NCBI RefSeq assembly: GCF_025232395.1
Contig: NZ_CP065938.1
Coordinates: 1,054,001-1,118,000, forward strand
Origin: Taurinivorans muris
GTDB lineage: Bacteria > Desulfobacterota > Desulfovibrionia > Desulfovibrionales > Desulfovibrionaceae
DNA length: 64,000 bases
Direction of reading: 5' to 3'
Both the position numbers and the translations under genes were made by a program. The notes under the pieces were generated by a model. That model did no database searches and was not told the DNA's origin. It saw nothing but the letters and a program-made list of their open reading frames with translations. Below, piece after piece: positions 7,578-45,054 of this stretch; the first letter of the stretch is position 1; each line of letters begins with the position of its first letter.

Positions 7578-9335
7578 TTATTTGAAGTTCTTTGCATCCA
7601 AGTGTTCGTACTTTGGCAAGAAACGAGTTGGAAGAGCAAGAGCGTCACGACGGAAAGGAGGAGCAAGTCTCCAGCCGTCTGTCATAATTTCGATAACAGC
7701 AGGACGACGGTTCTTTTGAGCTTCTTCAAGAGCGTTCTTGAGGTCTGCTTGGTTATTTACTTTATAACCGTCAGCACCCATTGCTTCACCGATCTTAGCA
7801 TAAGAATTTGACCAAATATCGGAACCAACAAAACGGTTGTTGTAGAAGTCAATTTGGTTTTTCTTTTCAGCACACCATGCACCGTTGTTGTAAACAGTAG
7901 CGATAACAGGAAGGTTGTATTGAACAGCGGTTGGAACTTCGAACAAGCTCATACCCCAAGCACCGTCACCTGCGATTGAGAGAACGGTATCTTCTGGGCA
8001 AGCGAGTTGAGCACCCAAAGCTGCTTGATAAGCAAAACCAGTGTTACCGAAAGTAAGGGTAGCAATGTGGCGTTTTGGATTTTTGAAGCGGAGGTAGCTG
8101 TTAGCAGTAGAAGAAGTGTTACCGATATCGGTAGTAGCGATAGCGTTTTTGTCGTATACAAATTGACCGACAACTTCCAATGCTTTACGTGGGTGCATAA
8201 GGGTTTCACCGTCACGTGTACCAACAGGTTCGTTAGCGATATCGTTGATTTCGTTGTACCATTGTTCAAGTTCAGCTTTAACCATGTTGTAAACAGGTTG
8301 GAGTTCAGCATCGGTTTTAGCTTTAAGAGCAGCTTGGAGACGTTTGAAGAGTTCTTCGGAAGCGTCTTTAGCATCAGCGCAAAGACCAACTTCAACCGGG
8401 TGGGTTTTTGCGATGTGTTGTGGGTTGATGTCGATTTGAACGATTTTAGCTGATTTCGGGAAATAGTTAATATCGTATTGCGGGAGAGTACCGAAGTAAG
8501 ACAAACGTGTACCGATAGCGAGGATAACGTCAGCTTTTTGGAGTATTCTCATAGCTGCTTTTGAACCCATGTAACCGATAGGACCGGTCCAGAATGGGTC
8601 GTCGCAAGGATATGCGTCGTTGTGGAGATAAGTAGTAGCAACAGGAGCACCCAAGAATTTAGCCATTTCTTGAACTGTTTTTACGCAGTCAGCATCAACA
8701 ACACCGCGGCCTGCAACGATAACGAGGTTTTTAGCGTTTTTGATTACTTCAACAGCATGTGCAAATTGAGCCGGGTTGCCGATACCGCCAGGAGCGACGC
8801 GGTATTGGTGAGGTTTTAAAATTTCTTCTTCAAGTTCACCATAGAAGTAGTCACGAGGAATATCTACGAGAACTGGTCCGCGTTGCGCATAAGCGGTACG
8901 GAAAGCTGTACGCATGATGTCGCCGGCGCGTTTTGGATGAGGAACACGGATAGAAGCTTTAGTAATAGGTTTGAAGAGGTTCCATGTATCACATTCTTGG
9001 AAACCGTCCCAACCGATAGAAACAGAACCAGCACTTGGAGAAATGATAACCATTGGTGTATGAGCCATGTTAGCTGTAGCGACAGCGGTAACAAAGTTTG
9101 TGACACCAGGACCGTTTTGACCGATTACAACACCAGCTTTACCGGTAAGACGGCAGTATGCGTCTTCCATGTGGCCTGCGGTTTGTTCGTGACGAACAGA
9201 AATAAAGTCGATGCCTGCAGCTGGGAAGAGGTCGAGAAGGTCCATATAAGCAGAACCCATAATACCGCCAACGTGGGTTACACCTTCGTTAACAAGTACT
9301 TCAGCCATAGCTTCACTGGGGGTCATTTTAGGCAT
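7578..9335 (-). CDS. xsc: Sulfoacetaldehyde acetyltransferase Xsc
   Basis: A 585-residue thiamine-diphosphate enzyme that converts sulfoacetaldehyde and phosphate to acetyl phosphate and sulfite, the carbon-sulfur bond-cleaving step of taurine breakdown. The N-terminal domain has the catalytic Glu in [13 protein letters not shown]. The cofactor-binding motif begins [11 protein letters not shown] and ends at YNNGAW. Length and the Xsc-like C-terminus ([22 protein letters not shown]) separate it from acetolactate synthase. GGAGG lies 6 bases before the ATG. Codons are strongly biased to GGT/GTT/GCT/CTT compared with neighbours, suggesting very high expression. A -24/-12 promoter lies about 130 bases upstream. 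Confidence 0.95.
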
Positions 9336-15329: not shown

Positions 15330-16448
15330 ATGATTGTTAGTGTTCCAAAAGAAATTAAAAACCAAGAATATCGTGTTGGTATTACCCCTGCCGGCGTTAG
15401 AGCTCTTGTTGACGCAGGTCACAAAGTTTTAGTTGAAAAAGACGCCGGTACCGCTATCGGTATTGCTGACGCTGACTATACTGCACAAGGTGCTACCATT
15501 GTTAATACCGCTAAAGAAGCATGGAGCGGTGACATGGTTGTTAAAGTAAAAGAACCTCTTGAACCTGAATACCAATATTTCCGCGAAGGAATGGTTCTTT
15601 TCACATATCTTCACCTTGCTGCTGAACCTGAACTTACTAAAGCGCTCATCAGCAAAAAAGTAACAGCTATCGCTTACGAAACAGTTCAGCTCCCAACCCG
15701 CGTGCTTCCTCTTCTCGCTCCTATGTCAGAAGTTGCAGGTCGTATGGCTGCTCAAGTTGGTGCAAACCTTCTTACAAAGAAAGAAGGCGGCATGGGCTTG
15801 CTCATGGGCGGTACCGCTGGTGTTCCTGCTGCTAACTTCGTAGTAGTCGGTGCCGGCGTTGTTGGTTTCAACGCTGCTAAAGTTGCTGTCGGCATGGGCG
15901 CTAAAGTTACCATCATTGATAACAACATCGACCGTCTCCGCCAAATCGACGACCTTTACGGCAACCAAATCCAAACCATCTTCTCAAACTCTTTGAACAT
16001 TGCCCATGCAGTGAAAGAAGCTGACGTTGTTGTTGGTTCTGTTCTTATTCCTGGCGCAGCAACTCCACAACTCGTAACCGAAGCTATGGTTAAAACAATG
16101 AAACCCGGCTCAGTTATCGTTGACGTTGCTATCGACCAAGGCGGTGCTGTTGAAACAACAGCTAAACACGGCGCTACAAGCCACGACAACCCAACCTTCA
16201 TGTTCAACGGCGTTGTTTGCTACTGCGTAGGCAACATGCCTGGTGCTGTTGCACGTACATCCACCTTTACTCTTACAAACGCAACATTGCCTTACATGGT
16301 ACAACTTGCTAACAAAGGCTGGAAAGAAGCTTGCAAAGCTAACGAATCTCTTGCTAAAGGTCTTAACACTCACGAAGGTAAAGTATTCTTCAAAGGCGTT
16401 GCCGACAAATTCGGTATGGAATGCCACGCTTTGAGCGAAGTGCTTTAA
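15330..16448 (+). CDS. ald: Alanine dehydrogenase
   Basis: A 372-residue NAD-dependent enzyme that oxidatively deaminates alanine to pyruvate and ammonia. Here it would regenerate the pyruvate consumed by the taurine aminotransferase. Family signatures are PKEIKNQEYRVGITPAGV at the N-terminus, the substrate Lys in VVKVKEP, the Rossmann motif VVGAGVVGFNAAKVAVGMGA, and DVAIDQGGAVETT. Strong codon bias toward T-ending codons, as in xsc and tpa, suggests very high expression. It follows a sigma54 promoter and has AGGAG 9 bases before the ATG. Confidence 0.96.
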   Translation: MIVSVPKEIKNQEYRVGITPAGVRALVDAGHKVLVEKDAGTAIGIADADYTAQGATIVNTAKEAWSGDMVVKVKEPLEPEYQYFREGMVLFTYLHLAAEPELTKALISKKVTAIAYETVQLPTRVLPLLAPMSEVAGRMAAQVGANLLTKKEGGMGLLMGGTAGVPAANFVVVGAGVVGFNAAKVAVGMGAKVTIIDNNIDRLRQIDDLYGNQIQTIFSNSLNIAHAVKEADVVVGSVLIPGAATPQLVTEAMVKTMKPGSVIVDVAIDQGGAVETTAKHGATSHDNPTFMFNGVVCYCVGNMPGAVARTSTFTLTNATLPYMVQLANKGWKEACKANESLAKGLNTHEGKVFFKGVADKFGMECHALSEVL

Positions 16449-16526: not shown

Positions 16527-17918
16527 ATGGCTTGCTGCAAAAAAGAACTTTCAGCTGAAGAAGTTATTGCTCTTGATAAAAAATATGTATGGCACCACCT
16601 TACCCAACACAAAGTTTTTGAAAATTCCGACCCGATGATTATCGACCACGGCAAAGGTATGCACGTATACGATATCAAAGGCAAAGAATATCTTGACGCT
16701 GTTTCCGGCGGTGTTTGGACCGTTAACGTTGGCTACGGCCGTGAAGAAATTGTTGACGCTGTTGCAGAACAAATGAAAAAACTCTGCTACTTTGCCAACT
16801 CTTTCGGCAGCACCCCAACCGCTATTTTCGCTGAAAAACTTATTTCCAAAATGCCTGGCATGAGCCGTGTTTATATTTCCAACTCCGGTTCAGAAGCCAA
16901 CGAAAAAGCATTCAAAATCGTTCGTCAAATTTCTATTTTGAAACATGGCGGAAAGAAAAACAAAATCATTTACCGTGACCGTGACTACCATGGCACGACA
17001 ATCACAACCCTTTCCGCTTGCGGACAGGAAGAACGCCGTGAACAATACGGTCCGTTCACTCCAGGTTTCGTTTCTTTCCCTGCAGCTAACTGCTACCGCA
17101 ACCCTTACGGTCTTGACCCAAGCGATCCGAAACTCGGTGAATTGTTTGCCAACGAACTTGAAAAAGTTATTTTGGCAGAAGGTCCTGACACTGTCGGCGG
17201 CGTTATCGTTGAACCTATCACTGCCGGCGGCGGTGTTCTTGTTCCTCCGAAAGATTACCTCACAAAAGTTTCCGCTATCTGCAAAAAATACGACGTTCTT
17301 CTCATTATCGACGAAGTTGTCTGCGGTCTTGGTAGAACTGGTAAATGGTTCGGTTACCAACACTTCGATGTACAACCGGACATCGTAACCATGGCTAAAG
17401 GTGTTGCTTCCGGTTATGCTGCTATTTCCTGCACAGTTACAACTGAAAAAGTATTCCAAGACTTTATTGCAGAACCTAGCGACCGTGAAAGCTATTTCCG
17501 TGATATTTCCACTTTCGGCGGATGTACTTCCGGTCCTGCGGCAGCCATTGCAAACCTCGAAATCATCGAAAGAGAAAATCTCCTTGAAAACACCGCCAAA
17601 GTTGGTGAATACTTCATGGGTAAACTTAACGAACTCAAAGATAAATACAGCGTTATCGGCGATGTTCGCGGCAAAGGTTTGTTCTGCGGTATGGAACTTG
17701 TTAAGGACCGTACAACAAAAGAACCTGTTGACGAATCAGTTTGCGGCGCAATTGTTGCCAACTGCATGAAACAAGGTGTTATCATCGGTAAAACTTCCCG
17801 TTCATTCAAGAAGTTCAATAACACACTCTGCTTCAGCCCTGCTCTTATCGCTACAACGAAAGATATTGACCAAATCGTTGCAGCTCTTGACAAAGCTTTT
17901 GCAGAAGTTTGCAAATAA
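16527..17918 (+). CDS. tpa: Taurine-pyruvate aminotransferase Tpa
   Basis: A 463-residue class III PLP aminotransferase that moves the amino group of taurine to pyruvate, giving sulfoacetaldehyde and alanine. Motifs include SNSGSEANEKAFK, RDYHGTT, the cofactor-binding IIDEVVCGLGRTGKWFG (Asp contacting the pyridine ring) and the Schiff-base Lys in MAKGVASGY near residue 292. The N-terminus (MACCKKELSAEEVIALDKKY) and length resemble known Tpa enzymes. Together with ald and xsc it completes the route from taurine to acetyl phosphate, sulfite and ammonia. Codon bias indicates high expression. GGAGG lies 8 bases before the ATG. Confidence 0.93.
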   Translation: MACCKKELSAEEVIALDKKYVWHHLTQHKVFENSDPMIIDHGKGMHVYDIKGKEYLDAVSGGVWTVNVGYGREEIVDAVAEQMKKLCYFANSFGSTPTAIFAEKLISKMPGMSRVYISNSGSEANEKAFKIVRQISILKHGGKKNKIIYRDRDYHGTTITTLSACGQEERREQYGPFTPGFVSFPAANCYRNPYGLDPSDPKLGELFANELEKVILAEGPDTVGGVIVEPITAGGGVLVPPKDYLTKVSAICKKYDVLLIIDEVVCGLGRTGKWFGYQHFDVQPDIVTMAKGVASGYAAISCTVTTEKVFQDFIAEPSDRESYFRDISTFGGCTSGPAAAIANLEIIERENLLENTAKVGEYFMGKLNELKDKYSVIGDVRGKGLFCGMELVKDRTTKEPVDESVCGAIVANCMKQGVIIGKTSRSFKKFNNTLCFSPALIATTKDIDQIVAALDKAFAEVCK

Positions 17919-34100: not shown

Positions 34101-35081
34101 ATGAAATACAGAAAATTACGGGAATTAGAAGTTTCAGCCATCGGTTTGGGCTGCATGGGCATGCATCATGCCTACGGAGCTCCCCGAAATGAAAAAGAAA
34201 TGATTAAATTAATTCATAAAGCCATAGAGTTGGGAATAACATTTTTTGACACAGCAGAAATGTATCAGTCGGCAGACCAGCCGCACGGCAACGAACTCTT
34301 AGTGGGCAAAGCGCTCAAGCCGTATAAAGACAAAGTGAAAATCGCCACGAAATTTGGATTGGCTTCCAATGAAAACAAAACGCTCATTACTGACAGCAGA
34401 CCGGAAACAATAAAAAAATCTGTGGAAGCAAGCCTTAAACGATTGGGCATTGAATGCATTGACTTATATTATCAGCACAGAGTCGACCCTAAAACACCGC
34501 TTGAAGAGGTTGCAAACACAATTTCCCGATTAATCCAAGAAGGAAAAATCGCCCATTGGGGCATGAGTGAAGCAAATGCGGAACAAATACAAACATCACA
34601 TGCTATCTGCCCTTTGACTACCGTACAAAACAGATATTCCATCATGGCACGAAATTGGGAAGAAACAGTTTTTCCTGTTTGCGAAACATTAAATATCGGC
34701 TTTGTCGCTTTCAGTCCCTTGGCAAATGGATTTTTGTCAGGAGCATACACAAAGGACTCACAATTTGATAAGGATACGGATTTCAGAAGTTTTCTCCCTC
34801 AATTCCAGCCCAAAAATATGGACGCCCACCAGGAACTGCTGGTACTCCTAGAAAACTTCGCTCAAGAAAAAAATGCCACAAAAGCGCAAATTTCTCTTGC
34901 CTGGATGTTGGCGCAGCGTCCTTTCATCGTTCCTATTCCAGGCACAACAAAAATTTCAAGACTAATTGAAAACACAAATTCAGCTGATATCGAACTGTCA
35001 AAAGAAGAACTTTCAAAACTTAACGAAGCGCTCAGCCATATTGAAATCAAAGGCGTATATTTGGGTGCTTTAATCAAATAG
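34101..35081 (+). CDS. Aldo-keto reductase
   Basis: A 326-residue NADPH-dependent reductase with a TIM-barrel fold. The catalytic tetrad is complete: D50, Y55, K84 and H126 ([23 protein letters not shown]). The C-terminal cofactor-binding stretch is [22 protein letters not shown]. It resembles members acting on reactive aldehydes. It is first in a run with two flavoproteins and divergent from an AraC regulator, which suggests an inducible response to carbonyl or redox stress (inference). Confidence 0.92.
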
Positions 35082-35092
35082 GAGAAATCACC

Positions 35093-35725
35093 ATGAACGT
35101 ATTGCTCATTAATGGTTCACCCAATGAAAAAGGCTGCACCTACACCGCATTATGTGAAATCGCCGCGACACTTGAACAAGAAGGAATCGGCGCAGAAATT
35201 TATTTTATCGGCAAAGAACCGATCGCCCCTTGCAGAGCTTGCCGCGCATGTGCAAAAATCGGTCATTGCGTCATCAGCGACAACGTCAATGATTTTGTTG
35301 AATATGCAAGGAATTTTGAAGGATATATTATCGGCTCTCCCGTGCATTACGGTTCTGCGGCAGGCGTTATCGCATCATTTTTAGACAGAGCGTTTTTTGT
35401 TGACTTCATGTCAGGACATAATTCTTTTATCCACAAACCTGCAAGCGCCATTGTTTCCGCACGCCGCGCCGGCACGACAGCAACACTTGACCAACTCAAC
35501 AAGTATTTTCAAATCAACCAAATGCCTATTATTTCAGGAAGATATTGGAATATGGTACATGGAGCGAATCCTGAAGAAGTGAAAAAAGACGAAGAGGGCA
35601 TGCAAAACATGCGGATTTTAGCCCGTAATATGGCATATCATTTAAAATGCAAAGAAGCTGCCCAAAAAGCCGGGGTTATCCCTCCAAAACAGGAACACGT
35701 CATTTTTACCAATTTCATTCGCTGA
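35093..35725 (+). CDS. Iron-sulfur flavoprotein (ISF family, NADPH-dependent FMN reductase fold)
   Basis: A 210-residue flavodoxin-like protein with FMN-binding loops (LINGSPNEKGCTYTAL and IIGSPVHYGSAAG). The compact cysteine motif is C47-x2-C50-x2-C53-x5-C59. This is the spacing of methanogen-type iron-sulfur flavoproteins, where it binds an unusual [4Fe-4S] cluster. Such proteins transfer electrons and can help reduce oxygen or peroxide in anaerobes. It starts 11 bases after the aldo-keto reductase gene, in one operon. Confidence 0.85.
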   Translation: MNVLLINGSPNEKGCTYTALCEIAATLEQEGIGAEIYFIGKEPIAPCRACRACAKIGHCVISDNVNDFVEYARNFEGYIIGSPVHYGSAAGVIASFLDRAFFVDFMSGHNSFIHKPASAIVSARRAGTTATLDQLNKYFQINQMPIISGRYWNMVHGANPEEVKKDEEGMQNMRILARNMAYHLKCKEAAQKAGVIPPKQEHVIFTNFIR

Positions 35726-35751
35726 CAAAAATAACATAAAAGGAAACTCCT

Positions 35752-36321
35752 ATGAAAAAAATCCTCTTTCTTTTTCTGGCATTGCAGCTCTTTCTCACAG
35801 GTGCTGCTTTTGCGGCAGTCCAAACCAATCAAGGAGAAAATATGAACGGCAGTAAACTGCTCATCGCCTATTTCTCATGGGGCGGAAACACGAAACATAT
35901 TGCTGAAAAAATTCAATCACAAACAGGCGGAGATATGTTCAGAATTGAAACACTAACGCCCTATCCTGCCGATTACAATGAAACCGCTTATGGAATTGCC
36001 AAAAAACAACACGAAGAAGGCACGCTGCCGCCATTGAAAGACAATGGTGATGTTTCCCAATACGATATCATCTTTATCGGTACGCCTGCATGGTGGCATG
36101 AAATGGCGCCTGCGGTAAAAACATTCATCACCAGCAATGACTTCGCAGGAAAAACAATTGTCCCTTTCATTACCCACGGCGGGGGCGGAGAATACACCAT
36201 TCATGAGGATATGACAAAACTTTCCAAAGGAGCGAATGTACTCAAACCTCTTGTGATTTTCGGCGACGGCAACTCCCATACCGACGATGAAATAAAGGAC
36301 TGGCTCAAGCAAATAGAATAA
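35752..36321 (+). CDS. Flavodoxin with N-terminal export signal and a second internal start
   Basis: A 189-residue protein. Residues 1-22 form a signal peptide (MKKILFLFLALQLFLTG, cleavage after AFA), followed by a flavodoxin domain whose FMN phosphate loop is SWGGNTKHIAE. The motif GTPAWWHEMAPAVKTF is typical of the YkuN/flavodoxin_4-like group. A second ATG at 35842 (codon 31) has AAGGAG 5 bases upstream and begins exactly at the flavodoxin domain. Export is unusual for a flavodoxin, so one gene may yield both periplasmic and cytoplasmic forms (inference). Confidence 0.82.
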   Translation: MKKILFLFLALQLFLTGAAFAAVQTNQGENMNGSKLLIAYFSWGGNTKHIAEKIQSQTGGDMFRIETLTPYPADYNETAYGIAKKQHEEGTLPPLKDNGDVSQYDIIFIGTPAWWHEMAPAVKTFITSNDFAGKTIVPFITHGGGGEYTIHEDMTKLSKGANVLKPLVIFGDGNSHTDDEIKDWLKQIE

Positions 36322-36483
36322 CTAAAACATTCCCTAATGACATTAGGAAGTTAAGCTATAAAATTATAAACTTTCAGAGGATAAATTTTTCCAAAGTTTT
36401 TCCCCTTACCTTTCAAAACGTTTTATTTGAATCAATTATTGTAAATGCTCCAGCCTAATCGAACAAATTTATTTTATACCAAT

Positions 36484-37212
36484 AAAAACCACCGGCTAAG
36501 CCGGTGGTTTTCTCCAGCCCTGTAAGGGCATATTACTGGCTTACGCCTAAAGGCGTTTTGAAGTGTTCGCCAATCGCATTACATTCACAAGCTGCTACTA
36601 AAGTAGCTCACCATTGCCTTAATTATTCTTACTGCCCGTAAATGGGTCAAAGTATTCTTTGAACGTCATTTGGTCATTGATTATATCTTCATTCAATTGA
36701 TTTCGAATGTATTCCGCTATTTTTTCTCTATTGCGTCCTACTGTATCAACATAATAGCACCTGCACCAGAAATGCCTGTTTCCGTATCTATATTTCAGAG
36801 TTGCATGTCTATCAAATATCATCAAAGAACTTTTTCCTTTCAGATACCCCATAAATGCCGATACGCTCAGGTTGGGCGGAATGGACACAAGCATATGTAC
36901 ATAGTCAATGCATGCCGTCGCTTCTATTATTGAAACTTTCTTTTGCTCGCAAAGCTGCCGAAGAATTTTTCCAATATCTTCTTCTAATTTTAAATATATT
37001 GCCTGACGCCTAAATTTGGGAGCAAACACAATATGATATTTGCAATTCCATTTTGTATGAGATAAACTTTGACTGTCTTGCATAAGACACTGTCCTCCTT
37101 TGATGTTATGATTGACGAACACATCGAAACATACCAAAGGAGGACAGGCTTGTATCTAAAGATTTTTATTCCACCAGCTTAGCTGGTGGTTTTTTTGAGC
37201 TAAAGCGCACAA
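36484..37212. mobile_element. IS200-type element (IS200/IS605 family)
   Basis: A single transposase gene is bounded by two terminal hairpins. The left is ACCACCGGCTAAGCCGGTGGT (three short pieces: ACCACCGG, CTAAG, CCGGTGGT) at 36489-36509. The right is CCACCAGCTTAGCTGGTGG at 37171-37189, followed by T residues and GAGCTAAAGCGCACAAAAAA. There is no tnpB. No target-site duplication is expected in this family. It lies just beyond the terminator of the envelope cassette. Confidence 0.85.
36619..37083 (-). CDS. tnpA: IS200-family transposase TnpA with altered HUH motif
   Basis: A 154-residue single-strand transposase. Family landmarks are THTKWNCKYHIVFAPKFRRQ-type N-terminus (here SLSHTKWNCKYHIVFAPKF), FMGYLKGKSSLMIF, HFWCRCYYVDTVG and the catalytic-Tyr helix REKIAEYIRNQ. 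The HUH motif normally reads H-[VI]-H; here it is DYVHML, so the first histidine is Tyr (codon TAT). Metal binding is probably impaired. AAGGAGG lies 11 bases before the chosen ATG. Confidence 0.9.
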   Translation of the reverse strand: MQDSQSLSHTKWNCKYHIVFAPKFRRQAIYLKLEEDIGKILRQLCEQKKVSIIEATACIDYVHMLVSIPPNLSVSAFMGYLKGKSSLMIFDRHATLKYRYGNRHFWCRCYYVDTVGRNREKIAEYIRNQLNEDIINDQMTFKEYFDPFTGSKNN

Positions 37213-37305: not shown

Positions 37306-37848
37306 TTACCTATTTTTGAACAAAGACAAATCATCTGACCATTGTCCTTTAAGCTCACCGTTAAGATCAAATATTTTAATTTTCATTGTGTAATCAACAA
37401 GTTTTTGCCCATCAGGAGCACGGGTGATAATATCGGTAATTTCTGATTGCATAATATAATCAAAACTTGTTGCTGTTGTATCTAAGACCCGTACTTGTCC
37501 TGAATTGAATAATACTTCAATTATCCTATCATGAATATCTTGTACTCTCAAATTCTCGTCATGGGTATTTTGACGAATATCAGCAACAACAATGCGAGGA
37601 AGACGTTTTTGATTTATAAAAGCTGGAGACTGCAACATCTTATTGGTTAAGTTTTCAGCAAAAGCAATAATATCAGAAAGACTGATTTTTGTATCCAATT
37701 TAATTCTTTCAGAAGAATCTACAATGGAAATAGAAGTATTTCTTCCTTGATAAGCAGGCGAATTTGAAGCATTATAACCTGATTGAGTACAAGCACTTGC
37801 AAAAATCAATACAACAAAAGCAAAAGAAAGTCTTAATATTTTTTTCAT
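37306..37848 (-). CDS. LpoB-like lipoprotein (penicillin-binding protein activator family)
   Basis: A 180-residue exported lipoprotein. A signal peptide ends at the lipobox-like FASAC near residue 19. The remainder resembles LpoB: a helix around FAENLTNKMLQSPAF, the strand PRIVVADIRQNT and RVQDIHDRIIEVLFNSGQVRVLD, the CsgG-like alpha/beta fold. E. coli LpoB spans the periplasm to stimulate PBP1B. It is last of six co-oriented genes and starts 17 bases after the YcfL-like gene, a neighbour pair also known from E. coli (ycfL-lpoB). Confidence 0.8.
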   Translation of the reverse strand: MKKILRLSFAFVVLIFASACTQSGYNASNSPAYQGRNTSISIVDSSERIKLDTKISLSDIIAFAENLTNKMLQSPAFINQKRLPRIVVADIRQNTHDENLRVQDIHDRIIEVLFNSGQVRVLDTTATSFDYIMQSEITDIITRAPDGQKLVDYTMKIKIFDLNGELKGQWSDDLSLFKNR

Positions 37849-37865
37849 ACAATTCTCCTTTAAAA

Positions 37866-38339
37866 TTACATTGTTTGATTAGTATTCATTGTTGAGGGAT
37901 CTGGAGTTGGTACCCAAATTTGTACATCTTGTGCAAAGCGGAAATGTACAGTGACCTTCTTCGCTTTTATGGACTTACCCATATCAACAATAACTTTTTC
38001 TCCATTTTGAGGTAAGGTTATTCGTTGCCATGCAGAACTTGTGATAAGTGGTGCACCAAATTCATCTTCCCATGAGCATTGATACTCAAAAGGAACTTTA
38101 TTAGGAATAACATTTTTTAATCGTACTATAACACGAGGTAAATTTCCTGTTGCATCTAATTGCCTATCCATTACCTTTACGGCATTATATTCAACCTCAC
38201 TACCATAAATAATTGTAATGAGAGGGTGAGATCTATCTTCTAAAACAATGGGTTCAAGAGCAGTTACCGCATTATTTGTTTGCGCACAAGCAGATAAAAC
38301 AAAAGTTACAAATAGAAAAGCAATGAATTTAATTTTCAT
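37866..38339 (-). CDS. YcfL-like lipoprotein (DUF1425)
   Basis: A 157-residue predicted lipoprotein with signal peptide MKIKFIAFLFVTFVLSAC and a perfect lipobox (LSAC). The rest (PRVIVRLKNVIPNKVPFEYQCSW and GAPLITSSAWQRITLP) matches the YcfL/DUF1425 immunoglobulin-like fold. The function is unknown; in enterobacteria it neighbours lpoB. The start is at MKIKF with AAGGA upstream; the frame runs 16 codons further but that would bury the signal peptide. Confidence 0.8.
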   Translation of the reverse strand: MKIKFIAFLFVTFVLSACAQTNNAVTALEPIVLEDRSHPLITIIYGSEVEYNAVKVMDRQLDATGNLPRVIVRLKNVIPNKVPFEYQCSWEDEFGAPLITSSAWQRITLPQNGEKVIVDMGKSIKAKKVTVHFRFAQDVQIWVPTPDPSTMNTNQTM

Positions 38340-38352
38340 AAATATTTTTCCT

Positions 38353-39801
38353 TTATTTATTCGTAATCCAAGACTGCTTATTTGCAAAAGCCTTTAATTG
38401 ATTTTCATAACTTACAGCATATACAACGGTTGGACCTAATTCAGCGATATCTACGGCATATTGTGCCATAATTCTCTTTTTCTCGTCATAAGTTTGAATC
38501 GTTACATTTTTTGTCTTATTAGGAACATAGAAACGTGCAACAATTACTTTATTAGGCAAAGTTAACCAAGAACGAGTATCTGGTCTTTGAAGAGTTGCTG
38601 CAATATTGACACCTAAATCACCTAAAAAAGCACTTGCAGTTCCCGACCGTAACAAAGCTAGAGTAACCATGGCAGTTCTAAAAGGCAAACGATCTTGATC
38701 ATCTCTTAAAATAATGGATTCCATTTTACTCAAAGAAGAAAATGTTTGGTTTCCTCCAGTATAAATAACTTTTGCACCTGCCACATTACTTGGAATAGGT
38801 GTTGCTGTAGCAAAATTTACAACTGCTTTTAATTTATCAATTTGATAACCTTGTACGCTTTCTTTGCGTTCAGGAGAAAAACCGTCAGCTAAAATTATAT
38901 GAACAAGCTTTTTACCTTTAGGAACACCTCGACGAACTTCTTTAATAGCAGTTTTTGCAGTTCCACAATCCTTATTATTTTCTAATACTTTTTTATAGGC
39001 AATAATGGAATTATCACGAATGCTTTTATCATCAATACCATCTAATTCTAACAACAGTGCATCCATATAATCCCCAAAAGGATTAACATATGCATTTGGA
39101 ACAAGTTCAGCTTTTTTCTTTATTTCTTCATCACGATTATCTACATTTACTTCACTAGCAATCTTTTTTTGATTATCAGCCTGTTTAGCTTGCTTTTCTT
39201 CAAATTCTACGAGAAGTTCTTTAAACTTTTCCCATTCTTCTTGTTGTTTTTCAATAGCCCGTCTTGTTACGTTATAGGCTTTTCTATCACCTAGGAGCAT
39301 ATAACATAACGCCTTATAATTTAGCAACATAACTTTTTCATAACCACGTAAAACATAATCATTTACTTCTTCAGAGCCAAAAAGTGTTGCTATTCCGCCT
39401 TTAGAAATGGTAGCCCCCAATTTATACATGCCACTTTCTGCTTCGCATTGTTCCATCTTCATTTCACCAGCATCAAAATACAATAAAGCACGTTCAAAAT
39501 CACCGGCATTTAATATGAGTAGCCCCCGTTCAAGAATAGATAACTCACTATTATTTTTCACTAATTCCTCAATAATTTCATCACGAGATTTTTTATTACC
39601 ATCTTCTGTATAATATTTGGATTCAATTTTATTAATTAACTCTTCTGCTTTACCTTCTTGAAGAGCAGTTCTTGCTGGAGCATAGGCTTCAGCATAAGTT
39701 TTTGTTGCTTCATTTTCAACTAAACCCAAACGATCACTTTTTCCTGCACAAGCAGACAAGCCTAATATCATAACAAATAATAAAAAACATTTTAACTGCA
39801 T
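38353..39801 (-). CDS. COG3014-family TPR-like lipoprotein
   Basis: A 482-residue predicted lipoprotein with signal peptide MQLKCFLLFVMILGLSAC and lipobox LSAC. The N-terminal half (about 25-250) is helical and TPR-like (RGLLILNAGDFERALLYFDAGE), with a charged coiled-coil stretch around 190-230. The C-terminal half is beta-rich. It fits an uncharacterised family (COG3014) found next to LpoB and YcfL homologues. Probably an outer-membrane scaffold for the cassette (inference). The ATG at 39801 puts the signal peptide at the true N-terminus. Confidence 0.7.
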   Translation of the reverse strand: MQLKCFLLFVMILGLSACAGKSDRLGLVENEATKTYAEAYAPARTALQEGKAEELINKIESKYYTEDGNKKSRDEIIEELVKNNSELSILERGLLILNAGDFERALLYFDAGEMKMEQCEAESGMYKLGATISKGGIATLFGSEEVNDYVLRGYEKVMLLNYKALCYMLLGDRKAYNVTRRAIEKQQEEWEKFKELLVEFEEKQAKQADNQKKIASEVNVDNRDEEIKKKAELVPNAYVNPFGDYMDALLLELDGIDDKSIRDNSIIAYKKVLENNKDCGTAKTAIKEVRRGVPKGKKLVHIILADGFSPERKESVQGYQIDKLKAVVNFATATPIPSNVAGAKVIYTGGNQTFSSLSKMESIILRDDQDRLPFRTAMVTLALLRSGTASAFLGDLGVNIAATLQRPDTRSWLTLPNKVIVARFYVPNKTKNVTIQTYDEKKRIMAQYAVDIAELGPTVVYAVSYENQLKAFANKQSWITNK

Positions 39802-39831
39802 ACCAAACCTCACATATATACTGTTTTAAAA

Positions 39832-41187
39832 TTAAAAAGCATTTAAATCCATTGATACAGCGCCTTCAGAATAGGAAGAATCATACTGTTTTTTGTTTTC
39901 TTTACCATTAAAATCAGTTTTTTCATCAAAAACTGATTTTGCATTTTGAATATTGTCAAAACTATACGTCATAATTACCCCAACAACCTCATGCCCTTCT
40001 GGAGTTTCATAAATCCATTCTTGCAAAATCTGTGCTCCTTGTAAATAAGAACTTGTACGAGCTTGTGCTTGTTTATACATTTTATCTATAAGGGCTTCTT
40101 CTTTTGCTTTTTCAATCATTCCTGTTTTGCCTTCTTTAACCACATATTCTTCTAAAATTTTACCACGTTCTGTTTCAATTTCAGAAGTAAAACTTTGATT
40201 AAGAAAAGTTGAAATTTCTTTATAAGCAATATCCCTTGCTTGTTCAAAAGCAGCATCTCTATATTCTGCAAGCAATGTATCATCTTCACTTACAGAAGAA
40301 TTCGCCCATTGTCCAAAAGCTACTAAAACTGGACCGTTATCATCAATGAGTAAACGTGAACCTAACATGTTATATAGTTTTTCATTATTATCCAATGGAA
40401 GAAGCTCTTTTAACGGTTTACCTAATTGTAACATTGCTGGTTTCTTACCCATTTTAAATGCATCCGCCACACTTTCAATTTTTGGAGAATACACAATAAT
40501 AACACCAACAGCCCCAAAACCTTCTTCATTATTCCTAAAAAATGTCTGTATCGTTGTAATCCCACCTAAACTTTTTGAAAATCTTTGTACGGACTTCGTG
40601 ACCATTTGATTACTAAGCAATACTTTCTTTTGATCAGCAGGAGAAGCATTAAATTGTACGGGGTCGATACCTAATTCTTTTAACGCAGCATCTAATTTTG
40701 CACCTGTAAGAGCCATAATTTTATCAATAAGTGATACAAATGAACTTTGTTCACTTGCTAACTCTTTATCAAAATCTTCACGGTTAGAACTATTATCGGC
40801 AAATACTTTTTGTAACGTTTCGCTTTTATACGTTATTGCTACAGAACGAAAAAATTTTGATAAAGCTTGTAAATAAGCTTCTTCATACGCTAAAACTCTA
40901 TACCGGGCATAGTCAGGATGTGAAATTTCTTTATTAATCCTTACAATACCATAAAAAATTTGTCGCCCATTAGTTTTTAACTTATTTGTATTAATATAAT
41001 TATTAATATCTGAAACTAATTCAACCTCAGGTCTTTGAACTGTTTTTTTCACAAGTTCTTGTGCTTGTACTGCAGAGTTTGTTTCTATAGCTATATTTTT
41101 CATAGAAGCCTGTTCTTCTGCGTAAACAAAAGAAGCTCCCAAAAGCACCAATACACAAATATAACTACTTAATATAAATTTATTCAT
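39832..41187 (-). CDS. Exported protein of the LpoB-type cassette (DUF6844-like)
   Basis: A 451-residue protein with a cleavable signal peptide (MNKFILSSYICVLVLLG, cleavage after VYA near residue 23) and no lipobox. The sequence is mixed alpha/beta with several long helices (YARYRVLAYEEAYLQALSKFF, DAAFEQARDIAYKEISTFLNQ) and two similar strand motifs, GAVGVIIVYSPK and HEVVGVIMTYSFD, suggesting an internal duplication. I recognise it only as an uncharacterised family that travels with LpoB/COG3014 genes. Gap to the next gene is 9 bases. Confidence 0.6.
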   Translation of the reverse strand: MNKFILSSYICVLVLLGASFVYAEEQASMKNIAIETNSAVQAQELVKKTVQRPEVELVSDINNYINTNKLKTNGRQIFYGIVRINKEISHPDYARYRVLAYEEAYLQALSKFFRSVAITYKSETLQKVFADNSSNREDFDKELASEQSSFVSLIDKIMALTGAKLDAALKELGIDPVQFNASPADQKKVLLSNQMVTKSVQRFSKSLGGITTIQTFFRNNEEGFGAVGVIIVYSPKIESVADAFKMGKKPAMLQLGKPLKELLPLDNNEKLYNMLGSRLLIDDNGPVLVAFGQWANSSVSEDDTLLAEYRDAAFEQARDIAYKEISTFLNQSFTSEIETERGKILEEYVVKEGKTGMIEKAKEEALIDKMYKQAQARTSSYLQGAQILQEWIYETPEGHEVVGVIMTYSFDNIQNAKSVFDEKTDFNGKENKKQYDSSYSEGAVSMDLNAF

Positions 41188-41196
41188 TTCAGTCTC

Positions 41197-42465
41197 CTAC
41201 CAATTTGGTTGCATTGTTTTCACTTTATTTTTTTCTTTTTTATTATTTTGACCATGTTGAGCATCAATGAGCCTTACAATATATTGATTGGTATTAACTA
41301 TAGTAAGTTCCACATTAGAGTGTAAAATTTTTGCATGTGAAAACTTAGGTGCAACATCTATAATTTCTACCTTACCGATTACAATTTCATCTTTAGCTAT
41401 TGCCTCATTTGTATATGGGTTCATAAGAACTTTTCCATATTGAATAAGATTATATTGTTGCCCAACTCGAATAGAATCCCCGCCTCTTGCAAGTGTCAAT
41501 ATTCCATTATCATGAGATAACACTAATATTGGAAACGTAATATCACTTATTTTTGTGCCTATTTTCTCACCAGCAGGACGAGCCAATTTTGCTATCCAAT
41601 CAAAATCAATTTCTGAATTAATACGTTCCTCAAATTTTTCATCATGTACACCAGAAGCCATAATCATACCTGTTGGTACATTAATTAATCGCCATGAAAT
41701 AGAAGAGATTCCAGTCACCATTAAAGCTTCTTTATTCAAATAAGGAACTTTTTCTTTTTTTACTTTAGCATTAAAATTTGTAATTGATCCCACTAAAATA
41801 TAATCTGCACCAACAGAATTACCCACTCGTGTCCGTTCTTCTGCTTTTACATCATCACCTTGTAAAAGCTCAAACTCTGCATATTTATCTTTTAAATAAT
41901 CCCTATCCAAAATTGCATAATTTCTTGTTTGAGTTAGAAAACTTACAATACCTTGATTTAATTCCTCAATAAACTGTAACTCATAAGGATTATTTTTATC
42001 CAGTACTTGAAAAAGCATAACTGCAATTTTTTTTCTTTCAACGGACTTTTCTGATTCATAATAATTTACAACAGCAGAAATTGTAACATCAATATTACCA
42101 GTACGTACAGCGGATTCACGTTCACTTAAAATAGAATATGAACGGATATATCCTTTAGCTTTAGAATAAATTTGATTTACTTGCTTCTCATCAAAAGAAT
42201 TTTCACGAATGCTACTTTTTTCATTACCTTCAAGACTATCTTGTGAAGAAAAACTTACTAAGGCCTGACTTAATTGTTGTGAGTCAATATAAACACCAGT
42301 AACTTGTGCCAAAGCTTCAATAAGTGCTTTTTGAACAGCTTCTTCCTTATTTTTTCCCGTACCAGTTATTTCTACAGTTCTTTCTTTTATTCCTGAGGCA
42401 TTGCACTCATAAGAAAATGCCCAAAAGGCACAATATATACATATAATAAGTTGTATTTTTTTCAT
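41197..42465 (-). CDS. CsgG/FlgT-like periplasmic or outer-membrane protein
   Basis: A 422-residue exported protein with a signal peptide (MKKIQLIICIYCAFWAFS, cleavage near residue 24). The N-terminal domain has the FlgT_N/LPP20-like pattern TGTGKNKEEAVQKALIEALAQVTGVYI. The middle is CsgG-like (KIAVMLFQVLDKN, FIEELNQGIVSFLTQTRNYAILDRDYLKD, GADYILVGSITNF). A C-terminal FlgT_C-like domain follows (GGDSIRVGQQYNLIQYGK). It is built like flagellar protein FlgT, but no flagellar genes are nearby. It likely assembles in the envelope with the LpoB-like partner (inference). Confidence 0.75.
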   Translation of the reverse strand: MKKIQLIICIYCAFWAFSYECNASGIKERTVEITGTGKNKEEAVQKALIEALAQVTGVYIDSQQLSQALVSFSSQDSLEGNEKSSIRENSFDEKQVNQIYSKAKGYIRSYSILSERESAVRTGNIDVTISAVVNYYESEKSVERKKIAVMLFQVLDKNNPYELQFIEELNQGIVSFLTQTRNYAILDRDYLKDKYAEFELLQGDDVKAEERTRVGNSVGADYILVGSITNFNAKVKKEKVPYLNKEALMVTGISSISWRLINVPTGMIMASGVHDEKFEERINSEIDFDWIAKLARPAGEKIGTKISDITFPILVLSHDNGILTLARGGDSIRVGQQYNLIQYGKVLMNPYTNEAIAKDEIVIGKVEIIDVAPKFSHAKILHSNVELTIVNTNQYIVRLIDAQHGQNNKKEKNKVKTMQPNW

Positions 42466-43206
42466 AGCTGGACCTATTTAGAGGACTTTACAGGGCGTCT
42501 TAAAATATAACCTGTGCTTACAGAAGTGGCATTTCCATTAACCATATGCACAACACTAGCTTTTGGATTAATCCGTACAACTTTTACCTTACCAATCAAG
42601 GTTTCAGTTGAACCTAAATTCTCTCCGGTTGCAGGATCAATTAATTCCTCACCGGGCTCAAAAACTTCAAATACTTCCCCAAGTTTCATACCAGAATCAT
42701 TCCCTCTATTAATCCAAATATCTTGATTAGATACAGAAACAATAGTAGAAGATGCTTTTATCGGAAAAGAAGCAACAACAGCTCCACGTTCTGTATCAAT
42801 TATTTGTACTGAAAGCTCTATTGAGCAATAATCATTTACTTTAAATTTATTTTGTATATTAGGAACCTTTGAAGAAGAACGCCCAAAATTAAATTGTAAA
42901 ACTTCAACTTGCACTAACGATTGAGCATTAGAAATATTTCCTGTCGCAGCGGCATCACCTGCAGCATATTCACTTGAAGCAAATTCTTGTTCTTTTCTTA
43001 TTGCTTCCAACGCCGCACTGCGTCTAGTTAGAAGCTCAAACTTTCTTCCATTTCGTATTGCATTTTCAATATCTGCAATTAAACTTGAATTTTTAACTAG
43101 TTCTGCTTGTTTTGCAGGAACTAAATCACTGACAATTAAATCAGATACAGCAATTCTATATTTTGCAAGCACTTCAGCATTCACACTGCCCACCGCAAAA
43201 AAAAGA

Positions 43207-43916
43207 GGCTCTTGACCATTATCTTTTTCGATATTATGGTTAATAATAATGAAATTCAATAGATTAAGTAAGTATAAAATAAAAAAAATTATTAACTGTT
43301 TTTCAATGGATTTAACTGCCACTGCAACAAGTGAATTATTAAAGTTAAATAGTAAAACTGTTAACAATTATTTTACAGAATTTCGTGAGTTAATTCTTGA
43401 AGACAGTATTCAAAAACATCAAAAAGAGCTTGGAATATTTGAACTTGACGAAAGCTATTTCGGAGCCAAAAGAGTGAGAGGCAAGCGAGGACGCGGAGCT
43501 GCCGGCAAGACTCCTGTTTTTGGAGTGCTGAAGCGTGAGGGAAAAGTTTTTGTCAGCATAGTTCCACGCTGTTCCAAAGAAGAATTAATGCCTATAATTC
43601 AGGGTAAAATCCTCGAAGGCTCAACTATCCATACAGAAGGCTGGAAAGCCTATGACGGTCTTATTTTGAATGGTTACACCCATTATAGGTATTCCACCAT
43701 GAAAACGAATTTGTGCGGGGAAAATCTCATGTGAACGGCATAGAAAGCTTCTGGAGTTTTGCTAAAAAACGATTGGCGAAATTCAATGGTCTGACGGATG
43801 AAAAATTTATATTGCATTTAAAAGAATGTGAATGTAGATTTAACCTCAGAAATGAAAATTTTGCTGTTTTTATGGAACAACTTTACTTCAGAAACAAAAA
43901 GTGATGGTCTAGAGCC
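43207..43916 (+). mobile_element. IS1595-family element (IS1016-like)
   Basis: Terminal inverted repeats are GGCTCTTGACCATTA at 43207-43221 and, reading inward from the other end, GGCTCTAGACCATCA at 43902-43916 (13 of 15 matching). The element is about 710 bp with one transposase frame. Flanking direct repeats AAAAAGA occur at 43200-43206 and 43917-43923. The family usually makes 8-base duplications, so one base may have been lost in the A run. Confidence 0.88.
43249..43904 (+). pseudogene. IS1595-family transposase, frameshifted
   Basis: The first part (43249-43734) encodes the helix-turn-helix and RNase-H-like core: FELDESYFGAKRVRGKRGRG carries the first catalytic Asp, and IHTEGWKAYDGL follows. 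The second part (from about 43690, another frame) encodes RGKSHVNGIESFWSFAKKRLAKFNG, the C-terminal signature. A one-base deletion near 43689 (TATAGGTATTCC, where an extra base restores H-Y-R-V-F-H-H) breaks the frame. The second catalytic position reads TEGW where relatives usually have TDGW. The element is probably unable to move by itself. Confidence 0.85.
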
Positions 43917-43955
43917 AAAAAGAAACATAAATACAAAACTAATAACCCTCTTCAT

Positions 43956-44977
43956 ACCCTCTCCTTAAATAAAATATATGTTTTTTAATTGTATTCTCCT
44001 CACCATAACAATCTTCCATAATAAAAAATTCTTATTATTAATTTTAAATTATGCAACATTTATAATAGGCATGTATACAAAAAATTAATAAGATTAAATA
44101 AAAATCCTTTTTTATCTAACTAATAAAAAACATTTTTTCATATACAGAAATTTCACATTAGAATAATGCCCCCCTATTCGTCAAGCAACTTTTAAAAAAG
44201 TATTTTAATTTGAGTAAGTACTTAATTTATTTTCCAACCTAAGGTAAAATGAAACTATTCTAAAGAATATTCTTTAATCCATTGGGATAATTTTCTCTCT
44301 ACACCCGCTAAATTTTCCTAATCCCCACCATTGATAAGTTCTTTTATGTGACGCCCTACAAGCCTTAATACCAACTCTTATCACTCAAGATTATGCTTTT
44401 ACCCCCTCCCTGTAACCCTGCCTATAATTGATTATCATTTTGTTTTTATTACGTAAAGTAGCCCAATTCCATATATCACAAAATGGGTGTGCTTCTATCC
44501 TAAAACCTAATAACAGTATTACCAAGTTAGGTGCATCTTAACCTAAGCAAAATCTTTATAATTTGTTACCTAACCATGAAATAGCACACATATTTGGACT
44601 GCACATTTTCCTGAAATAAAAACGGTAATAAGCTCACTCCATTTACTCTCAATCAAATTGAGATAATTGCTATAATAACACATCTTATTATAAATGTTGT
44701 GACCAAACTTTTTATGTCGAATATTTCTATTATATTAAGAAAAGTCAAATAACGAACAGATTTTAAATGTTTAAATATTTAATAAATACAAATTGTTATT
44801 AAATTATTACTCAATTTTGTTCAACTATTCTTTCATCTAAATCAATCTAGAAACCTGTTCAATTTTAGTAGACTTTTTTAAACAAAAAACTTATTTAAGT
44901 TTTAATCCAAAAATAAAAAAATAGTTATAAGTTAAGTTTTTTCTTATAACCATTTTAATTTATGTATAATTTTAAAA
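43956..44977. other. 1-kb AT-rich gene desert
   Basis: No open frame of convincing length or composition occurs on either strand. The base composition is far more AT-rich than the housekeeping regions. The left edge must hold the promoter and leader of the interrupted cassette gene. The right edge touches the 3' end of tRNA-Arg. I see no RNA gene, array or repeat family inside. Confidence 0.5.
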
Positions 44978-45054
44978 TGGTGTCCCTGGCGAGATTCGAA
45001 CCCACGACCTTTCGCTTAGGAGGCGAACGCTCTATCCTACTGAGCTACAGAGAC
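44978..45054 (-). tRNA. tRNA-Arg (anticodon CCU)
   Basis: The minus strand folds as a tRNA. The acceptor stem is GTCTCTG/CAGGGAC, the D arm GCTCAGTAGGATAGAGC, the anticodon stem TTCGC/GCGAA with loop CTCCTAA (anticodon CCT, reading AGG), and the T arm GTGGGTTCGAATCTCGC. CCA is encoded. Its 3' end faces the AT-rich desert, the usual side of integration at tRNA genes, but no duplicated 3' fragment was found in the window. Confidence 0.95.

What the first reader, a model, noticed from the sequence alone, without database searches (positions are those of the whole stretch)
37306..43955. Six-gene AT-rich envelope cassette combining LpoB, YcfL, COG3014 and CsgG/FlgT-like proteins
All six products have signal peptides (at least two with perfect lipoboxes) and gaps between genes are 8-30 bases. 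Three proteins have CsgG/LpoB/FlgT-like folds, normally found in curli secretion, PBP1B activation and the flagellar T ring. No curli, flagellar or PBP gene is adjacent. The cassette may build an undescribed outer-membrane assembly or secretion structure. Its composition differs from the chromosome on both sides and it is bracketed by IS200 and tRNA-Arg, suggesting transfer.
Basis: inference. Interest (0 to 1): 0.7.

Follow-up and report, generated by a model that had tools for sequence, protein, structure and literature searches.

The report
Widespread uncharacterised outer-membrane scaffold operon
A set of genes for cell-envelope proteins, built from the same kinds of parts as known bacterial ring structures, recurs as one unit in several bacterial groups, and in this gut bacterium it looks borrowed and has one gene broken by a jumping element.

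Summary
Genes A-E are whole: LpoB-like (A), YcfL/DUF1425 (B), COG3014-like lipoprotein (C), DUF6844 (D), FlgT-like (E).

The set recurs. The same six genes in the same order occur in a congener, another Desulfovibrionaceae genome and a Succinivibrionaceae genome; rearranged sets occur in Halodesulfovibrio, an Escarpia endosymbiont, Francisella-like genomes and an Azospirillum plasmid. In 149 Desulfovibrionaceae genomes, all 10 with a D found by protein search carry A, C and E beside it; three others have distant D-like genes without A or C beside them.

The D tree joins window and congener to Succinivibrionaceae, supporting transfer between phyla. Canonical LpoB function is unlikely here: PBP1B's UB2H dock is absent from those 10 genomes. 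A purely flagellar role is unlikely: Francisella-like carriers lack FlgH.

Best reading: a lipoprotein-anchored periplasmic scaffold, probably ring-forming, from SHS2-, CsgG/FlgT- and TPR-type modules. Ring formation and function are inferred. My paper searches found no description of it.

The parts
37306..37848 (-). A: LpoB-like lipoprotein, 180 aa, short form lacking about 30 aa of the LpoB domain
   Evidence: PF13036 34.4 bits, cut-off 22.3; alignment with 10 relatives
37866..38339 (-). B: YcfL family (DUF1425) lipoprotein, 157 aa from ATG 38339
   Evidence: PF07233 40.8 bits, cut-off 28.3; lipobox LSAC
38353..39813 (-).
   Evidence: model pLDDT 68.8; TPR-type structural matches up to Z 11.6, a value common for helical repeats; relative L025 has TPR_19 over cut-off; motif DTRSW..LP conserved
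39832..41187 (-). D: DUF6844 periplasmic protein, two tandem SHS2-like repeats, conserved aromatic C-terminal residue
   Evidence: PF20891 90.9 bits; PDB 4QVR E 2e-52, Z 19.3; internal duplication hhalign 96%
41197..42465 (-). E: FlgT-like periplasmic protein: FlgP-like N domain (weak evidence), CsgG/LpoB-like middle, FlgT_C-like C domain
   Evidence: CsgG 37.4 bits; FlgT_M in 9 of 19 E sequences; PDB chains of a Campylobacter motor lipoprotein, CsgG and LysM/TsaP proteins
42474..43206 (-). F, 3' part: E-like middle and FlgT_C-like domain, missing about 50 residues against relatives
   Evidence: alignment with four relatives; E-F hhalign 99.9%
43207..43917 (+). IS1595-family element inserted in the signal-peptide codons of F
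   Evidence: PF12762 and NF033547; six near-copies elsewhere in the genome
43918..43955 (-). F, 5' stub: start codon and about 12 signal-peptide codons, ribosome-binding site upstream
43956..44977 (.). AT-rich leader (GC 0.25) between tRNA-Arg and F without a long ORF; probable promoter region of the operon
   Evidence: promoter role inferred, no promoter scan was run
44978..45054 (-). tRNA-Arg(CCT) at one flank
36619..37137 (-). IS200/IS605 transposase at the other flank
   Evidence: NF033573 140.2 bits, cut-off 55

Best explanation
The operon encodes an outer-membrane-anchored periplasmic scaffold. A, B and C are lipoproteins that hold the complex to the inner face of the outer membrane; C's TPR-type half binds partners. 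D (two SHS2-like repeats) and E (FlgP-like, CsgG-like and FlgT_C-like domains), with F where intact, make the periplasmic body, probably an oligomeric ring or sheet comparable to FlgT, FlgP/FlgQ or TsaP. D and E pack directly on each other. The unit extends a C-B-A module that occurs alone in Aeromonas and in several Desulfovibrionaceae, with E and then D added. In this genome it was gained by transfer, most likely from a Succinivibrionaceae-like bacterium, and has since lost F to an IS1595 insertion and a deletion. Shown: gene content, recurrence, one D-E fusion, domain assignments by profile or by a weak model, F's damage. Inferred: anchoring, oligomerisation, D-E contact, order of assembly of the operon, direction of transfer, whether A-E still work here.
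For: Of 20 D-bearing loci, 5 have all six genes, 16 have A and C, 18 have an E-type gene and one more a D-E fusion. The 10 of 149 Desulfovibrionaceae genomes in which D is found by protein search all have A, C and E beside D. Named example in Azospirillum, not used to build the profiles. D-E fusion in L028. D is duplicated and matches 4QVR at Z 19.3, then Lpp20 at Z 6.9 and a chain of the LPHT flagellar ring, presumably FlgT, at Z 3.9. Profiles of E match CsgG and LysM/TsaP chains and, weakly, a Campylobacter motor lipoprotein, presumably FlgP. PMC12222027 (passages) says FlgP, FlgT, Lpp20 and dodecin share an SHS2-like fold and that FlgQ resembles two FlgP repeats. D ends in an aromatic residue in 19 of 20 against 18 of 170 other ORFs. 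The D homologue FTT_1539c is listed as immunoreactive in an OMV study (PMC10963506 passage). Tree: window, congener and Succinivibrionaceae together at 99/98.
Against: No experiment. The D model has pLDDT 54.5, and its Lpp20 and LPHT-ring matches are in the range where chance resemblance is common. D and E show no sequence relation to each other. The FlgP-chain hit (E 0.01) is not repeated with the larger E alignment. No FlgT profile is listed for the window's own E. Related sets lack D (L068, L069), and others have E with a D or D-like gene but no A or C beside them (L060, L061, L073, L078, L079), so no full set is obligatory. F is broken here, so the window copy may be decaying.
Confidence: 0.45

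Rival explanations
1. The operon is mainly a regulator of peptidoglycan synthesis: A activates a bifunctional synthase through the wall, and B, C, D and E are its helpers.
For: C-B-A occurs as a unit without D or E, for instance in Aeromonas caviae; PBP1B-type UB2H is present in both gammaproteobacterial carriers tested. E. coli pairs ycfL with lpoB (gene row in PMC11731830, passage).
Against: UB2H has no match in 10 of 10 D-bearing Desulfovibrionaceae, the window's genome included (of 14 control genomes the search rings in 6, E. coli among them). A scores 34.4 bits against the LpoB equivalog cut-off of 110.55 and lacks about 30 aa of the domain. Another synthase could take the place of PBP1B; this was not tested.
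Confidence: 0.2
2. It is an accessory to polar flagella: E and F act as FlgT-type H-ring proteins and D as a FlgQ-like partner.
For: E sequences match FlgT_M in 9 of 19, FlgT_C in 5 and FlgT_N in 2; FlgH occurs in 16 of 20 carriers, the window's genome included; the window's organism, if T. muris, has polar flagella (PMC10507020 passages).
Against: Three Francisella-like carriers (G580, G719, G824) and G757 have no FlgH match. G719's D lies on a contig of 2,054,094 bases of a genome given as 2.1 Mb and matches FTT_1539c over its whole length; the completeness of these four genomes is not told. No flagellar gene is adjacent by my reading. I have no background rate of FlgH in non-carriers.
Confidence: 0.15
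3. It is a CsgG-like export pore for an unknown substrate, with lipoproteins as gate and plug.
For: CsgG profile over cut-off in E and matched at E up to 0.1 in 16 of 19 E sequences.
Against: E and the congener's F carry no lipobox; FlgT_M and FlgT_C match E sequences too. By my reading no gene recurs beside the set as a substrate would in the 20 loci.
Confidence: 0.1
4. In this genome it is a decaying import with no function (not exclusive of the readings above, which concern what an intact operon does).
For: F has an IS insertion and an internal loss; composition is far from the host's; three of five congeners, two of them under 90% complete, show no match to D, C, E or LpoB.
Against: A-E are open and of similar length to the congener's, and 15 of 20 D-bearing loci have no separate F.
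Confidence: 0.3

Closest known systems
C-B-A module (COG3014-like, YcfL, LpoB), e.g. Aeromonas caviae NZ_AP026896.1
   Same: Same three lipoprotein genes in the same order, recognised with the profiles built here
   Different: No D, E or F beside it
Francisella FTT_1539c / FTT_1540c
   Same: FTT_1539c (PDB 4QVR) is the D homologue, and FTT_1540c, next by number, is annotated LpoB (PMC8149597 passage); Francisella-like loci here show A-D-E-C
   Different: E lacks the N domain, no F, B not detected, different order
FlgT of the Vibrio flagellar H ring
   Same: E sequences show FlgT_N-, FlgT_M- and FlgT_C-like parts, each in some members
   Different: None listed for the window's E; not beside flagellar genes by my reading; occurs in genomes without a FlgH match
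FlgP/FlgQ basal disk of Campylobacter
   Same: Weak hit of E's N domain to chain C of 9HMF, presumably FlgP; D has two SHS2-like repeats, as FlgQ is described to resemble two FlgP repeats
   Different: E has two more domains, D is not shown to be homologous to FlgQ, no flagellar context
TsaP of type IV pili
   Same: C domain of E and F matches 3JC8 (named TsaP) and 6VE2 (a LysM-domain protein; TsaP by recall)
   Different: No LysM match in E or F; association with pili not tested
CsgG curli pore
   Same: Central domain profile over cut-off
   Different: No lipobox, extra N and C domains

Membership tests
LpoB (A) | PF13036 over gathering score | tested here: met
   34.4 bits against 22.3
LpoB (A) | NCBIfam equivalog TIGR02722 over cut-off | tested here: not met
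   34.4 against 110.55
LpoB (A) | UB2H-bearing PBP1B partner in the genome | tested here: not met
   PF14814: no match in the window's genome nor in the other 9 Desulfovibrionaceae searched; present in 2 of 2 gammaproteobacterial carriers
YcfL (B) | PF07233 over gathering score | tested here: met
   40.8 against 28.3
COG3014 (C) | COG profile match | not testable with these tools
DUF6844 / FTT_1539c (D) | PF20891 over gathering score | tested here: met
   90.9 against 27; matched in 11 of 11 D sequences of A4
DUF6844 / FTT_1539c (D) | fold of 4QVR | tested here: met
   Z 19.3, rmsd 6.0, 290 aligned, model pLDDT 54.5
FlgT (E, F) | FlgT_N, FlgT_M, FlgT_C profiles | tested here: inconclusive
   In 19 E sequences (one a piece of the D-E fusion) at E up to 0.1: FlgT_M 9, FlgT_C 5, FlgT_N 2; none listed for the window's E; F of the congener FlgT_C 21.9 bits, cut-off 27
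FlgT (E, F) | carriers are flagellate | tested here: not met
   FlgH in 16 of 20 carriers; no match in three Francisella-like genomes and G757, whose completeness is not told
LPP20/FlgP (D, N domain of E) | LPP20 Pfam profile or SHS2 fold | tested here: inconclusive
   No LPP20 profile match for D or E sequences; Lpp20 structure Z 6.9 for D; 9HMF chain C at E 0.01 for one E alignment, not for the larger one
CsgG (E) | PF03783 over gathering score | tested here: met
   37.4 against 20.8
CsgG (E) | lipidated N-terminal cysteine of the mature protein (recalled as a CsgG feature) | tested here: not met
   No lipobox in E of the window nor in F of the congener (my reading)
CsgG (E) | curli genes in the genome | not tested
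   No genome-wide search for csg genes was made

The most novel reading that the evidence does not exclude
The operon builds a so far undescribed, flagellum-independent ring machine at the outer membrane, of which the flagellar H ring (FlgT), the Campylobacter basal disk (FlgP/FlgQ) and the LpoB/YcfL module are specialised relatives. D and E carry conserved C-terminal peptide tails that dock on a common partner, perhaps the TPR-type half of C.
Probability: 0.3. Interest if true: 0.75.

Novelty: new variant of a known kind. Interest (0 to 1): 0.5.

Why it matters
It gives a shared gene context to protein families usually met apart: DUF6844 (including a Francisella immunodominant antigen with a solved structure and no stated function), YcfL, COG3014-like proteins and LpoB. 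It shows LpoB-like proteins in bacteria without the UB2H docking domain, and FlgT-type proteins in genomes without a FlgH match. If a complex forms, it would bear on how flagellar accessory rings arose, a question that in situ motor studies raise (PMC12222027 passages).

Tried and rejected
Single-protein scan of genome contigs with D found no relative; the alignment scan then gave four loci. PF20891 over a sample of the phylum found 2 of 395 genomes, one of them the window's, too few to use for co-occurrence. The idea of a tRNA-borne integrative element was dropped: no attachment repeat, and by my reading only cassette and IS genes among the ORFs between 36.4 and 45 kb. The 34.1-36.3 kb stretch gave no match in five congeners, but that call had no positive control. 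The same-species genome G113 cannot show an empty site: its contig ends inside the flanking gene. Phage records gave no match to C. A profile link between D and E's N domain was tested and not found. Foldseek alone gave only 4QVR at E under 0.001 for D. Four weak or second-stretch C rows (G123 second stretch, G108:C13, G079:C5, G093:C1:573461) were left out of the 25 C loci. B is short and divergent, so 7 of 20 is a lower bound. The profiles were built from some of the same loci that they then label; independent checks are Pfam and the Azospirillum and Aeromonas loci. Protein searches in plasmid records with C and E also listed Cupriavidus and Caballeronia E-like places, which I did not work out.
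Full report
WHAT IS THERE. The window is part of a single-contig genome of 2,172,708 bases. Size and composition fit Taurinivorans muris LT0009, reported as 2.2 Mbp and 43.6% G+C (PMC10507020, passages); taurine-degradation-like genes in the window (named from memory) agree. The identification is an inference. Between an IS200 transposase and tRNA-Arg lie, on the minus strand, genes F, E, D, C, B and A in that order of transcription.

THE SIXTH GENE IS BROKEN. F starts at 43955 with a ribosome-binding site and about 12 signal-peptide codons. It then runs into an IS1595-family element at 43207-43917, of which the genome holds near-copies at six other places with 79-95% identity. Beyond it F continues from 43206 to 42474. 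Against four of four relatives it lacks about 50 residues before its FlgT_C-like domain. In the congener G086 F is one open frame of 291 aa. So this genome has five whole genes and one damaged one. Of 20 D-bearing loci 15 have no separate F, so its loss need not end the function.

THE PARTS. A is LpoB-like but short. B is YcfL/DUF1425. C is a lipoprotein with a TPR-type helical half and a beta-rich C half; its model has mean pLDDT 68.8. Its best structural matches are TPR proteins at Z up to 11.6, which for helical repeats may mean only a common arrangement; a relative has TPR_19 just over cut-off. D is DUF6844: profile search finds PDB 4QVR, FTT_1539c, at E 2e-52, and the model, though weak (pLDDT 54.5), aligns to it at Z 19.3. 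D's two halves are related (hhalign 96%, E 4e-9) and resemble small SHS2-type proteins: first half Lpp20 Z 6.9 and Tip-alpha 5.1, second half Tip-alpha 5.0 and dodecins 4-5, and a chain of the LPHT flagellar ring, presumably FlgT, Z 3.9. These last values are in the range where chance resemblance is common. E has a CsgG/LpoB-like middle and a C domain like FlgT_C and TsaP (E 9e-8 to chain O of 6VE2, a LysM-domain protein). Its N domain hit chain C of 9HMF, presumably FlgP, at E 0.01 with one alignment but not with the larger one. In 19 E sequences, at E up to 0.1, CsgG matches 16, LpoB 15, FlgT_M 9, FlgT_C 5 and FlgT_N 2. E and F share middle and C domain (99.9%), and A shares the middle domain (94.5%). 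PMC12222027 (passages) states that FlgP, FlgT, Lpp20 and dodecin share an SHS2-like fold, that ring formation in the family goes with an insert between the helix and the second strand, and that FlgQ resembles two FlgP repeats. The comparison of D with FlgQ is mine.

IT RECURS AS A UNIT. D was found in 10 of 149 Desulfovibrionaceae genomes and 8 of 369 genomes of the class of the Succinivibrionaceae carrier, that carrier included. Twenty D-bearing loci (window included) were labelled with profiles built here. A and C lie beside D in 16 of 20, an E-type gene in 18 of 20 and a D-E fusion in one more (L028), a separate F in 5 of 20, and B was detected in 7 of 20. All six occur in 5 of 20: window, congener L020, L021 and Succinivibrionaceae L048 in the same order, and the Escarpia endosymbiont L046 with D and E swapped. 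Halodesulfovibrio and others have C-(B)-A-D-E; Francisella-like loci have A-D-E-C. The four loci without A and C are L060, L061, L065 (D lies at the contig's end) and L066. A named, annotated case is the Azospirillum sp. TSH100 plasmid NZ_CP039640.1 with hypothetical protein - YcfL - LpoB - DUF6844 - hypothetical protein; the profiles make the first C and the last E.

DO THE OTHER GENES VARY FREELY? In 149 genomes of the family (the handles agree between calls) there are 25 clear C loci in 24 genomes. Reading coordinates by eye, an LpoB match lies within about 2.5 kb in 24 of 25, and in the 25th my own profile finds A and B next to C (L075). An E-type gene is beside C in 12 of 25 and D in 10 of 25, and these 10 D loci all have C, A and E. 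The pattern is nested: C-B-A, then E, then D. Aeromonas caviae has C-B-A alone. Results against a fixed set: E-C-B-A and F-E-C-B-A without D (L068, L069), and a second operon type with E and no A, B or C beside it, three of which carry a distant D-like gene that the protein search did not report (L073, L078, L079; not L074).

TRANSFER. Cassette GC is 0.322, GC3 0.15-0.20 against 0.454 +/- 0.050 in 34 other CDS; the congener's cassette has GC 0.448. Of five genomes of the genus searched, G086 has the six genes, G067 has E-C-B-A and no D match, and G039, G101 (88% complete) and the same-species G113 (80% complete) match none of D, C, E and LpoB. In G086 the cassette is on contig C8, while the tRNA-Arg and its flanking gene are inside contig C10 with other genes after it. 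In the D tree the window and its congener join Succinivibrionaceae with 99/98 support, and the Desulfovibrionaceae label needs at least three changes on strongly supported branches, though it is still more clustered than in most shuffles (14 of 500 as low); three long branches lie elsewhere in the tree. Transfer is well supported; direction and donor are inferred.

WHAT IT IS NOT LIKELY TO BE. UB2H, the LpoB docking domain of PBP1B, has no match in the 10 Desulfovibrionaceae carriers but is present in the 2 gammaproteobacterial ones searched. FlgH is in 16 of 20 carriers, the window's genome included, and has no match in three Francisella-like genomes and G757; one of these, G719, encodes a D that matches FTT_1539c over its whole length. 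Flagella are therefore not required, though I have no background rate for non-carriers. E and F have no lipobox, unlike CsgG (CsgG's lipidation is recalled).

A TAIL WORTH TESTING. D ends in Phe or Tyr in 19 of 20 sequences, after a linker that aligns poorly; the exception is the D-E fusion. Among 170 other mechanically chosen ORFs of at least 150 aa in the same loci, 18 end in an aromatic residue. E ends in Trp in 5 of 19, and 8 of 19, the fusion included, end in LPFD or within two residues of it. A ends in Trp or Phe in 12 of 16, B in 0 of 7 and C in 0 of 16. Relatedness inflates these counts, but a kept end after a loose linker suggests a docking peptide.

MECHANISM AND LITERATURE. I think A, B and C anchor a D-E(-F) body to the outer membrane, and that the body is an oligomeric scaffold. 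Confidence is 0.45; oligomerisation, anchoring and D-E contact are inferred. I found no description of the set: searches for DUF6844 (0 papers), COG3014 (0), COG3014/LpoB/YcfL (5, none with COG3014), FlgT/LpoB/CsgG (8, none with FlgT) and a six-term search (3), in an open-access library only. FTT_1539c appears as an immunoreactive protein in an OMV study and a vaccine study (passages), and FTT_1540c is annotated LpoB (passage).

I added the distant D-like genes outside the set, the unrepeated FlgP-chain hit, the UB2H controls and the presumed identity of two PDB chains.

Noticed in passing
L073 4359-8672, L074, L078, L079, L060: A second operon type pairs an E-type gene with a D, D-like or similar-sized exported gene and a 440-485 aa exported gene, without A, B or C.
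   Followed up: partly
43249-43734 and 43713-43904: The IS1595 transposase is split over two frames (161 and 63 aa), so this copy may be dead or use a frameshift.
   Followed up: no
L080 11233-14993 (record 260548-280416): In Azospirillum sp. TSH100 a giant Ig-like-domain protein gene of about 20 kb lies near the cassette on the other strand.
   Followed up: no
34101-36330: Aldo-keto-reductase-like, NADPH-dependent-reductase-like and flavodoxin-like genes (names recalled) beside the IS200 gave no match in five congeners (without positive control), so the acquired stretch may be longer than the cassette.
   Followed up: partly
L020 8354-9310: In the congener a gene with a weak WCX domain (22.4 bits, cut-off 23.9) sits directly upstream of F; I saw no counterpart upstream of F in the window.
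   Followed up: no
L068 1-4163: A third genome of the genus (G067) has E-C-B-A without D; its contig ends just upstream of E.
   Followed up: partly
7578-9335, 15330-16448, 16527-17918: ORFs that look like a taurine pathway (sulfoacetaldehyde acetyltransferase, alanine dehydrogenase, taurine-pyruvate aminotransferase; names recalled).
   Followed up: no
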